From Polyangiaceae bacterium (GTDB taxonomy: Bacteria > Myxococcota_A > Polyangia > Polyangiales > Polyangiaceae): a stretch of 64,000 nucleotides of DNA. Below the pieces are notes generated by a model. That model was not told where the DNA came from. It did no database searches and saw only the letters and a program-made list of their open reading frames with translations. The stretch covers positions 1 through 64,000 of the forward strand of contig JAFGBI010000234.1 of the NCBI GenBank assembly GCA_016933275.1. The letters are read 5' to 3'. Positions 7,664 through 58,464 of the stretch are shown here, in pieces. The translations under genes and the position numbers were made by a program. Positions within the stretch are counted from its first letter, which is position 1; each line of letters opens with the position of its first letter.

Positions 7664-7686
7664 CCGATCCCGACCGCGGCCGGTCC

Positions 7687-7996
7687 AAAGCAGCAATCAG
7701 GTTGATTGCTGCGTCAAACCGATCGCCTAGCCCGGCGGACCCGGAACCAAACAGGCCATCAGCGGCCAGCGGTCAGGCACAACACGGAGACCCTGATTGC
7801 TGACGCCCGGTTGCTGATGGCCACCAGAACGTCGAAGAACATTCTGCCGGATCGGCTCAGAATCCCACCGCCAACGGACTGGGGCACCGACCCGGCAGCA
7901 GACCTCGTCGGTGGCGGCGCTGGAAACACGCCCTCACCTCGCACAGAGGCGTCCTTTGCGCAGCCGTTGCGGTGGGCAACCCGATCGGTGTCCTAG
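7687..7996. repeat. dispersed intergenic repeat, copy A (long form, + orientation)
   Basis: Left end AGCAGCAATCAGGTTGATTGCTGCGTCA, right end GGGCAACCCGATCGGTGTCCTAG; internal ~160-bp segment shared with copy B. Confidence 0.85.
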
Positions 7997-21850: not shown

Positions 21851-22203
21851 CTAGAGCAGCAATCAGGTTGATTGCTGCGTCCAATCAACAACCCAAGCCG
21901 GCGGAGCCGGAACCAAACAGGCCAGGCCATCAGCGGTCAGCGGTCAGCGTTCAGGTAGAACGCGGAGACCTTGATCGCTGACGCCTGATTGCTGATAGCC
22001 ACGAGAACGCTGAGAGATTTTCTGCCGGATCCGGTCAAGATCACACCGCCAAGGGACTGGAACACCGAACCGGGAGCAGATCTCGCCAGAGGCGCCGCTG
22101 GAAGCGCGTCCTCGCCTCGCACGGACGCGTTTTCAGCGGCGCCGTTGCGATCGGCAACCTGATCGGTGGTCCACAGCTGCAATCAACCTGACAGCTGCGC
22201 TAG
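21851..22203. repeat. dispersed intergenic repeat, copy B (long form, + orientation; extra degenerate end on the right)
   Basis: CTAGAGCAGCAATCAGGTTGATTGCTGCGTC ... GGCAACCTGATCGGTGGTCCA followed by CAGCTGCAATCAACCTGACAGCTGCGCTAG (reverse-complement-like left end). Confidence 0.85.
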
Positions 22204-36107: not shown

Positions 36108-36220
36108 CTAGAGCGCCGATCAGGTTGCCAACAGCAACGGCAGCGCTAGAGAGATCTGCTGCCGGTTCGGTGCTCTAGGTTGTTGATTTGACGCAGCAAT
36201 CAACCTGATTGCTGCTCTAG
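36108..36220. repeat. dispersed intergenic repeat, copy C (short, - orientation, central hairpin deleted)
   Basis: CTAGAGCGCCGATCAGGTTGCCAACAGCAACGGCAGCGCT|AGAGAGATCTGCTGCCGGTTCGGTGCTCTAGGTTGTTGATTTGACGCAGCAATCAACCTGATTGCTGCTCTAG. Confidence 0.88.
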
Positions 36221-36280: not shown

Positions 36281-36312
36281 TGACGCCGCAGTCAACCTGA
36301 TTGCTGCTCTAG
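36281..36312. repeat. dispersed intergenic repeat, copy D (solo end hairpin, - orientation)
   Basis: TGACGCCGCAGTCAACCTGATTGCTGCTCTAG, near-identical to the end of copy C. Confidence 0.8.
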
Positions 36313-55724: not shown

Positions 55725-55829
55725 GATATCTCCGAACGCCAACGATGGCCCGGACTGGGCCAATCGGACCGAAACCCTGGTCGCACGGATCCCGAGCAGG
55801 TATCCCATCCGGAATCCCCCGAGATCCCC

Positions 55830-55986
55830 AGAGCAGCAATCAGGTTGATTGCTGCGTCAAATCAACAACCTAGAGCACTGAACCGGCAGCAGACCTCGCC
55901 AGAGGCCGCGCTGGAAACGCGTCCTCCCCTCGCACAGACGCGTTTCCAACGCTGCCGTCGCTGTTGGCAACCTGATCGGTGCTCTA
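55830..55986. repeat. dispersed intergenic repeat, copy E (short form, + orientation)
   Basis: AGAGCAGCAATCAGGTTGATTGCTGCGTCAAATCAACAACCTAGAGCACTGAACCGGCAGCAGACC...GGAAACGCGTC...GACGCGTTTCC...GTTGGCAACCTGATCGGTGCTCTA. Confidence 0.9.
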
Positions 55987-56058
55987 TTAGATCAGGGGCG
56001 TGGGGTTGGGTCCGCTTGACCCGCTCGCGCGGCTACTGTTAGCTTCGCGCGAACCGCC

Positions 56059-57669
56059 ATGCCTGCCGATTCCACTCCCGTCGATCCACGAGAAGAGTCC
56101 TGGGATGTCATCGTGGTGGGAACGGGAATGGGAGGCGCCACTCTGGGATACGCGTTGGCGCGACGGGGAAAGAAAGTATTATTCTTGGAGAAGGGGCTGG
56201 ACCTCTTCGGCAGTCACGATCGGGGCGACGGGAGCATGCCGAGCGATGAACCCGAGGACGCAGAGGAGCGCTTGCGCTCGGGTCGCTGGCCCTTGCGATT
56301 GGAGGGTGACACCTCGTTCGGCGCCATGAAGTTCTTCGGCGCGATCGGCTGCGGCACCGGGGGTTCCAGCAGCATCTATGCGGCCCAACTCGAGCGGCTG
56401 ATGCCCCACGACTTGGAGCCTCGCCGGCACTTCGCGAAGTACAAGGATACCTCGCTGCCTGAACGTTGGCCGATCACCTATGACGAGCTCGTGCCTTACT
56501 ACCGCCAGGCCGAGGCGCTCTACCGGGTCTGCGGCTCGCCGGATCCGTTGAATCCGGACCCCAAGAGCCCGATTCTCGAGCCACCACCGATGAGTGACCG
56601 GGACGCTTCCTTGTTCGCTGCCTTCCAGCAGCTGGGGCTGCACCCGTATCGCGCCCATCTCGGATGCCGTTTCCTCAGCAAGGACTGCGGCGGCTGCGCG
56701 GGGGTCCTCTGCCCCCGGGGGTGCAAGAGCGATTCAGGGAACATCTGTCTCTTGCCGGCCGTCGAGCAACACGGGGCGCGAGTCATCACCGAAGCCGAGG
56801 TGCTTCGGCTCGAGGCCAACGGGTCGCGAGTCGAACGCGTGATCTACCGGCATCGCGGTGAGGAGCGGTGGGTCCGCGGCAAGGTCGTCGCCGTGGCCGC
56901 AGGGGCGCTCATGACGCCGGTGCTGTTCCTGCGCTCCCAGTCCGACGTATGGCCGAACGGTCTTTCGAACCGGACAGGCCTCGTTGGCCGCAACCTGATG
57001 ATGCACACCTCGGACTACTATGCGATCCGCCCGAGCCGCTATCATTCGCCGGAGGGGCCATACAAGGGGATCTCCCTCAACGACCTCTACCTCAAGGATG
57101 GGGTCAAGATGGGGACCCTGCAGTCGGCGGGGATGGCCGTAAACGCGGGGATCATCAACTACTACCTCAAGACCCTCGCCGAGAAGCTGTGGTACATGAG
57201 GATCGGCAAGGTGGCGCGAAAACTCGCGTCATACGCCGGCGCCGCCATCTTCAATCGCTCGGCGGTGATGGTCAGCATCGTGGAAGATCTCCCCTACCAT
57301 GACAATCGCGTCGTGCTCGATTCGAATTCGCTCGACGGGAGGCGCTTCATCTACACCTATCCTCGAGAGCTGGCAGAACGCAACGAGCAGTTCTATCGAC
57401 ACCTCCGCCAGCTGCTGGCGCCGAAGCTGATGGTCCTCCCCATCTTCTTCGGCAAGAACAACCTCAACTTCGGGCACGTCTCGGGGACTTGCCGTGGGGG
57501 TGACGACCCCGCCACTAGCGTCGTCAACCGCGACAACCGGAGTCACGACGTAGAGAACCTCTACGTCGCGGACAGCTCGGCGTTCCCGTCGAGCGGGGGG
57601 ATCAACCCGTCGTTGACGATCGCGGCCAGGGCACTCCAGGTGGCCGACGCGATCGACGCCGCTCTGTGA
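56059..57669 (+). CDS. GMC-family oxidoreductase (FAD-dependent)
   Basis: DVIVVGTGMGGATLGYALARRGKKVLFLEKG FAD-binding motif; C-terminal NLYVADSSAFPSSGGINPSLTIAARALQVAD. Confidence 0.93.
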   Translation: MPADSTPVDPREESWDVIVVGTGMGGATLGYALARRGKKVLFLEKGLDLFGSHDRGDGSMPSDEPEDAEERLRSGRWPLRLEGDTSFGAMKFFGAIGCGTGGSSSIYAAQLERLMPHDLEPRRHFAKYKDTSLPERWPITYDELVPYYRQAEALYRVCGSPDPLNPDPKSPILEPPPMSDRDASLFAAFQQLGLHPYRAHLGCRFLSKDCGGCAGVLCPRGCKSDSGNICLLPAVEQHGARVITEAEVLRLEANGSRVERVIYRHRGEERWVRGKVVAVAAGALMTPVLFLRSQSDVWPNGLSNRTGLVGRNLMMHTSDYYAIRPSRYHSPEGPYKGISLNDLYLKDGVKMGTLQSAGMAVNAGIINYYLKTLAEKLWYMRIGKVARKLASYAGAAIFNRSAVMVSIVEDLPYHDNRVVLDSNSLDGRRFIYTYPRELAERNEQFYRHLRQLLAPKLMVLPIFFGKNNLNFGHVSGTCRGGDDPATSVVNRDNRSHDVENLYVADSSAFPSSGGINPSLTIAARALQVADAIDAAL

Positions 57670-57736
57670 TCTGCTTGCCTGCCCGCCGTCCGAACCAGGT
57701 ACGCGCTCGGGAACGGGTGGCCAGCCGTGGCGCGCC

Positions 57737-58165
57737 TCAGGTCTCGCCGGATCCCTCGGTGAGCAGCGCGCAGTAGCGCGCCATCGCGGCCAGACGCCGC
57801 AAGGAGCGCTCGGAGTCGAGGTCGACCTCGTCAACCAATTCCGCGAGCTTGACGCGCTCCTGGTCGTCATTCGCTTCGAACGAGAACCCGGCTCGACTCC
57901 CCTCCGACCAAACGAGGGAGGCACGAACGGACATGGGCCGAAGACGTCCCGGAACATGAAGGAGCATCGGGATCGTCACCTCATGCTCGTGAGCAATGGC
58001 GCTTGGTCGCTCGACCCTGATACCGGTGGAGGATAGATCGGTCGCCCGTGCGCGCACCTGCCAGCGCTCGTGGCCCCAGACAACATCGAAAGCGACACGA
58101 CGCCGCTCGGCGCCACGGCGCTCCGCAGCGGGGGGGGGACGGCGCACGGGCTCCCTGCTAGCCAT
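57737..58165 (-). CDS. PilZ-domain protein
   Basis: ERRGAERRRVAFDVVW...RATDLSSTGIRVE...VSLVWSEGSRAGFSFE. Confidence 0.85.
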   Translation of the reverse strand: MASREPVRRPPPAAERRGAERRRVAFDVVWGHERWQVRARATDLSSTGIRVERPSAIAHEHEVTIPMLLHVPGRLRPMSVRASLVWSEGSRAGFSFEANDDQERVKLAELVDEVDLDSERSLRRLAAMARYCALLTEGSGET

Positions 58166-58305
58166 TGCCGACAACTCGGTTAGTGTGCCGAGAAGGACCC
58201 AATCATCCAGAAATCTGTGTCCCGTTCCGAGAACGCCTCGATTTCGGCCGAGCAGCCACACTAGCGGGCTGGACACCCCGGCCCAACTTCCCGTTCCCGC
58301 TAGCC

Positions 58306-58464
58306 AGAGCAGCAGTCAGGTTGATTGCTGCGTCATATCAACAACCCAAAGCACCGAACCGGCAGCAGATCTCGCCCGAGGCGCCGTTGGAAACGTACCC
58401 TCGTTGGGCATGGGTACGTTTGCAGCAGCGCTGTTGCTGTTGGCAACCCGATCAGTGTTCTAGT
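58306..58464. repeat. dispersed intergenic repeat, copy F (short form, + orientation, covarying stem)
   Basis: AGAGCAGCAGTCAGGTTGATTGCTGCGTCATATCAACAACCCAAAGCACCGAACCGGCAGCAGATC...AAACGTACCC...GGGTACGTTT...GTTGGCAACCCGATCAGTGTTCTAG. Confidence 0.9.

What the first reader, a model, noticed from the sequence alone, without database searches (positions are those of the whole stretch)
55830..58464. Dispersed MITE/REP-like intergenic repeat family with CTAG-bounded terminal inverted repeats
Sequence shows six related intergenic copies (A 7687-7996, B 21851-22203, C 36108-36220, D 36281-36312, E 55830-55986, F 58306-58464). Ends are imperfect inverted repeats: CTAGAGCAGCAATCAGGTTGATTGC on one side versus CTAGAGCACCGATCAGGTTGCCAAC (reverse complement of the other side). 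No transposase is encoded inside. Established: IS630-family elements insert at CTAG duplicating TA, and REP elements carry a conserved tetranucleotide at a hairpin foot. Inference: non-autonomous element mobilised in trans. I do not recognise it as a named family.
Basis: partly seen in the sequence, partly recalled or inferred. Interest (0 to 1): 0.78.

Follow-up and report, generated by a model that had tools for sequence, protein, structure and literature searches.

The report
CTAG-bounded MITE family in a polyangial genome
Hundreds of copies of a 160-base "hitch-hiker" DNA element, with no gene of its own, sit between the genes of a relative of Sorangium; its ends and its strict CTAG landing site match an IS1182-family jumping gene, so it is a known kind of parasite DNA in a lineage where I found no earlier description of it.

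Summary
The window repeat is a 160-bp element bounded by CTAG. The genome has 761 sites within two mismatches of its 20-base end, against 1 for a reversed control. Two of the six window copies are full-length (E, F), two are composites carrying a second CTAG-inserting repeat (A, B), one is an internal deletion (C) and one a left-end fragment (D). Occupied/empty comparisons show insertion at CTAG with CTAG (or its central TA) duplicated.

The IS630 and REP readings are not supported. The genome holds three IS630 remnants, one of them interrupted by the element, and one IS200-type gene with no repeat near it. A search with the repeat's ends alone found a 1737-bp IS1182-family insertion sequence, seven near-identical copies in a genome of exactly the size of Sorangium cellulosum So0157-2. 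One IS end matches the repeat's end at 19 of 20 bases, and its empty site in relatives is a single CTAG. The window's genome has no detectable IS1182 transposase, so the copies look orphaned.

Verdict: a genuine MITE family, most likely mobilised by an IS1182-type transposase. New member of a known kind; moderate interest for copy number, self-supplied CTAG targets and nesting.

The parts
55828..55987 (+). Copy E: full-length 160-bp family I MITE (terminal CTAG decayed to CCAG left, CTAT right)
   Evidence: strong fold z -5.8
58304..58463 (+). Copy F: full-length 160-bp family I MITE of a second subfamily (different but still self-complementary inner stem)
7685..7996 (+). Copy A: composite, family I with family II at its internal CTAG (family II about 7726-7880)
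21851..22174 (+). Copy B: composite, family I with family II at its internal CTAG (family II about 21888-22058)
22176..22203 (-). Extra inverted left-end module abutting copy B, ends in CTAG 22200-22203
36108..36220 (-). Copy C: 113-bp family I derivative with an internal deletion, CTAG intact at both ends
36281..36312 (-). Copy D: left-end fragment of family I only
55828..55847 (+). Left terminal inverted repeat of copy E
55968..55987 (-). Right terminal inverted repeat of copy E
55870..55873 (.). Internal CTAG of copy E, the position where family II sits in composites

Best explanation
Family I is a MITE: a 160-bp gene-free element with 20-bp inverted ends (CTAGAGCASCRATCAGGTTG) that inserts at CTAG and leaves CTAG on both sides. 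An IS1182-family DDE transposase supplied in trans most likely recognised the ends and moved it. Shown: the ends, the copy number, CTAG-specific insertion with duplication of CTAG (or its central TA), an end shared with a CTAG-targeting IS1182 element of the same bacterial family, and no detectable IS1182 transposase in this assembly. Inferred: that IS1182 transposase actually moved it, that the autonomous partner was lost here (or lies in the missing 7% of the genome), and that the inner palindrome is kept because it helps transposition or copying.
For: 761 end sites against 1 control. Sharp ends: C before TAG in 37 of 38 copies, random sequence beyond. Empty family III copies read AAGAAAC-CTAG-CGCGGGCACG and filled ones AAGAAAC-CTAG[family I]CTAG-CGCGGGCACG. 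A search with the ends alone found seven 1737-bp elements in G100, at least 99.9% identical, bounded by CTAG, encoding a transposase over the NF033551 IS1182 cut-off (290 against 270 bits). One IS end matches the family I right end at 19/20 and left end at 17/20. Of 2009 CTAG-started 20-mers in the 1.62-Mb sample, 103 lie within 3 mismatches of that IS end and 101 of those are in family I/II. IS copies of G107 have a single CTAG in the empty sites of G100 and G111. The G003 IS1182 remnant has the end CTAGAGCACCGATCACGTTG.
Against: The window's genome has no IS1182 match, and the one long IS1182 gene in G009, the other carrier of close family I copies, has different ends (CTAGGAGCGTGTAGGGGATAG); so the cognate pair is joined across genomes, not inside one. 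The second IS end matches less well (15/20 and 13/20). The middle of family I is unrelated to the IS as far as read here. Family III empty sites are paralogous repeats, not the same locus in two strains.
Confidence: 0.78

Rival explanations
1. An IS630/Tc1-mariner transposase moved the element, duplicating TA within CTAG.
For: CTAG with duplicated TA cannot be told apart from a 4-bp CTAG duplication; family II junctions (CTA-ACCC...GGGAC-TAG) fit a TA duplication; three IS630 remnants exist.
Against: No inverted family I ends were found around any IS630 remnant; L118 is an IS630 gene interrupted by family I, that is a target, and L120 has a 118-bp derivative next to it. IS1182 has the same ends.
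Confidence: 0.1
2. REP/BIME-like element moved by a RAYT (IS200-type TnpA).
For: The left end is a hairpin just inside a conserved tetranucleotide; one Y1_Tnp gene exists in the genome.
Against: That gene has no copy of the repeat beside it; the element has two-sided inverted ends and duplicates its target, which IS200/REP elements do not do (general knowledge).
Confidence: 0.03
3. The copies are kept for a host function, for example as bidirectional terminators between convergent genes.
For: About 92% of full copies lie outside predicted genes; 29 of 73 lie between convergent genes against 22% of all gene pairs (binomial p 0.0007). Stable fold, with double-sided changes in the stems (15 of 19 pairs; shuffles mean 8.5, maximum 13).
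Against: Removal of insertions in genes and promoters gives the same bias; gap length was not controlled and gene calls were crude; the stem changes mostly separate two subfamilies, so they need not reflect selection after insertion; copies decay (10% of them are below 80% identity to consensus).
Confidence: 0.08

Closest known systems
IS1182-family insertion sequence of Sorangium found here (1737 bp; NF033551)
   Same: CTAG target and CTAG at both ends; 20-bp end 19/20 identical to the right end and 17/20 to the left end of family I; same bacterial family
   Different: Carries a transposase gene; not present in the window's genome; middle not shared
ISPse1 (IS1182 family, Paracoccus seriniphilus, PMC3281130)
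   Same: IS1182 family with a listed 16/16 inverted repeat and 4-bp direct repeat
   Different: Autonomous, single captured element; target sequence not given in the passages read
IS1272 (IS1182 family, Staphylococcus, PMC5678879)
   Same: IS1182 family; a larger form with a tandem duplication of the left-end side, recalling the doubled left module of family I
   Different: Replaces inverted repeats without target duplication; family I loses no target DNA at family III sites
MITEs of Haloquadratum walsbyi (PMC3119063)
   Same: MITEs whose matching transposase is disrupted or missing in the genome, and mobile elements inserted into one another
   Different: Archaeal, related to other transposons, fewer copies (55 per strain)
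IS630-linked MITEs such as RUP and Correia-type elements (from memory, not tested)
   Same: Short, palindromic, intergenic, TA-related duplication
   Different: Different ends and transposase family

Membership tests
MITE | Short, no transposase gene | tested here: met
   160 bp, 57 of 74 aligned copies exactly 160 bp
MITE | Terminal inverted repeats | tested here: met
   20-bp imperfect ends
MITE | Target duplication with occupied and empty sites | tested here: met
   Family III empty and filled copies, in paralogous repeats
MITE | Ends shared with an autonomous element | tested here: met
   IS1182 end 19/20 in a sister genus; not within this genome
IS1182-mobilised element | Cognate transposase in the same genome | tested here: not met
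   No NF033551 match in G000, nine of twelve genomes rang; assembly 93% complete
IS1182-mobilised element | Transposase acts on these ends | not testable with these tools
   Needs a transposition assay
IS630-mobilised element | IS630 copy bearing the same inverted ends | tested here: not met
   Three truncated remnants, no paired ends
IS630-mobilised element | 2-bp TA duplication | tested here: inconclusive
   TA and CTAG duplication look the same at CTAG targets
REP/BIME | RAYT gene flanked by the hairpin | tested here: not met
   Only Y1_Tnp gene has no copy near it
Rfam RNA family | Match above gathering score | tested here: not met
   Only a tRNA in the window; none in L001, L281, L187

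The most novel reading that the evidence does not exclude
The family supplies its own landing sites: each insertion turns one rare CTAG into three (two ends and one internal), so repeats covering 2% of the sampled DNA hold a quarter of its CTAG sites, and copies build nested and tandem arrays as a self-feeding, gene-sparing expansion that outlived its transposase.
Probability: 0.2. Interest if true: 0.5.

Novelty: new member of a known kind. Interest (0 to 1): 0.36.

Why it matters
It ties a very abundant intergenic repeat of Polyangiaceae (the family of Sorangium) to a concrete transposase family and target rule, may explain many contig breaks in such assemblies, and gives a marked set of insertion sites for dating and typing. 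IS1182-linked MITEs at CTAG were not found in the papers searched, but most subscription papers and ISfinder were not available, so priority is not established.

Tried and rejected
IS630 and RAYT as mobilisers. Protein BLAST of the Sorangium transposase in seven genomes found nothing; repeated with the family model and positive controls. Plasmid and phage collections: no match to a full copy. Rfam: none. MITE empty sites among Sorangium genomes: one usable locus only (G107 at 4.169 Mb); three of the four relatives compared have CTAG at the right junction (the fourth TTAG), but the left spacer is several tens of bases longer in them, so it is not a clean empty site. Replacement of an inverted repeat, as for IS1272, was considered and rejected for family I because family III sites lose nothing. 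E and F as the ends of one composite transposon carrying the GMC oxidoreductase and PilZ genes: no evidence; they are same-orientation copies of different subfamilies.

Full report
Observation. The window is a 64-kb piece of an 8.25-Mb, 464-contig genome. Copy E gave 654 first-look candidates in the genome, of which 40 were scored; the 40 direct matches are 92-95% identical apart from E itself. The 23-base left hairpin with up to 3 mismatches is found 322 times forward and 340 reverse against zero for the reversed control; near-perfect copies count on both strands. The 20-base end CTAGAGCASCRATCAGGTTG with up to two mismatches is found 761 times (control 1), about 380 pairs.

Anatomy. From 1.62 Mb in 31 contigs: 178 non-overlapping family I segments, 80 of them full-length; 57 of 74 aligned copies are exactly 160 bp. 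Consensus: CTAG-AGCAGCAATCAGGTTGATTGCTGCGTCAAATCAACAAC-CTAG-AGCACCGAACCGGCAGCAGACC...inner hairpin...GTTGGCAACCTGATCGGTGCT-CTAG. A left module of about 42 bp with its own hairpin is followed by a near-palindrome of about 118 bp that starts with CTAGAGCACCGA and ends with TCGGTGCTCTAG. Flanks are random beyond CTAG. The left module can be doubled in tandem (L118, L093), and left modules are also found joined to other middles.

Nesting. A second repeat, family II (about 170 bp, 33 solo segments), sits at family I's internal CTAG in 13 composites, all in the same orientation; the composites have different flanks, so the unit was copied and probably arose once. Window copies A and B are of this kind. 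A third repeat, family III (about 205 bp), carries an internal CTAG that is empty in some copies and filled by family I in others. This is the main evidence that CTAG is duplicated on insertion. Of 99 full, composite or shortened family I elements examined, 28 have another repeat at an end. Repeats I-III cover 2.0% of the sample but hold 248 of its 1007 CTAG sites; CTAG is rare (1007 seen, 1744 expected from trinucleotides). The two shares (28% and 25%) are similar, so no preference for repeats beyond their CTAG content is needed.

Mobiliser. Only truncated IS630 remnants and one IS200-type gene turned up in the genome. Searching complete genomes of the same family with the end pattern gave seven inward pairs exactly 1737 bp apart in G100. 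G100 is 14,782,125 bp, the published size of Sorangium cellulosum So0157-2 (PMC3696898), so the family is Polyangiaceae by inference. The 1737-bp element encodes an IS1182-family transposase. Copies in G107 have empty sites in G100 and G111: gatatt-CTAG-ccttcg against CTAG[IS]CTAG. Other IS1182 elements in the family are also bounded by CTAG or a one-base variant, including one in G009 that shares its right CTAG with a family I relative. The IS left end matches family I ends at 19/20 (right) and 17/20 (left); an IS1182 remnant in G003 has an end that scores the same. Elements of 116-252 bp with these ends and different middles were seen in a dozen genera; across the class, 21 of 85 genera sampled have the end motif.

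Absence in this genome. The IS1182 family model finds nothing in G000, while ringing in nine of twelve genomes in the same call. The family I copies are therefore probably orphaned; the assembly is 93% complete, so a missed copy is possible.

Function. Full copies are about 92% intergenic and enriched between convergent genes (29 of 73 against 22%; crude gene calls). The fold is strong, and the inner stem keeps pairing through double changes that mostly separate two subfamilies. I read this as palindrome maintenance in source elements plus removal of harmful insertions; a host role is not shown.

Known versus new. MITEs, orphan MITEs and elements nested in elements are known (PMC3119063). IS1182 members with a listed 4-bp duplication (ISPse1, PMC3281130) and with inverted-repeat replacement and no duplication (IS1272, PMC5678879) are known. 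I found no paper joining IS1182, CTAG and MITEs, nor one on this repeat, within the open library searched.

Noticed in passing
window 7726-7880 and 21888-22058; solo e.g. L117:16650-16827: Family II, about 170 bp, a second dispersed repeat with CTA-ACCC...GGGAC-TAG junctions; its own mobiliser is unknown.
   Followed up: partly
L102 (contig C318:36029-36228), L235 (contig C129:17231-17437): Family III, about 205 bp, a third dispersed repeat with CTAG-like ends that serves as host for family I; 27 BLAST segments in 1.62 Mb, none in the window.
   Followed up: partly
L118, L093:6403-6909: The left-end module of family I is doubled in tandem, recalling the IRL tandem duplication reported for IS1272; mechanism unexplained.
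   Followed up: no
G000 contigs 152, 171, 219, 235 and others: Left modules are followed by an unrelated middle, CTAGGGACCCGCGTCCTCCGGGC..., perhaps a further CTAG-inserting repeat.
   Followed up: no
L194 (G009:C243): An IS1182 element with other ends (CTAGGAGCGTGTAGGGGATAG) shares its right CTAG with a family I relative.
   Followed up: partly
L162 (G107:C1:4169308-4169456): A Sorangium MITE with these ends has the middle AACCACAGAGGCACAGAGG...CCTCTGTGGTT, a palindrome that looks like a separate repeat.
   Followed up: no
window 56059-57669 and 57737-58276: Genes between copies E and F: a GMC-type oxidoreductase and a PilZ-domain protein; copy E lies in the divergent gap upstream of the former.
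   Followed up: partly
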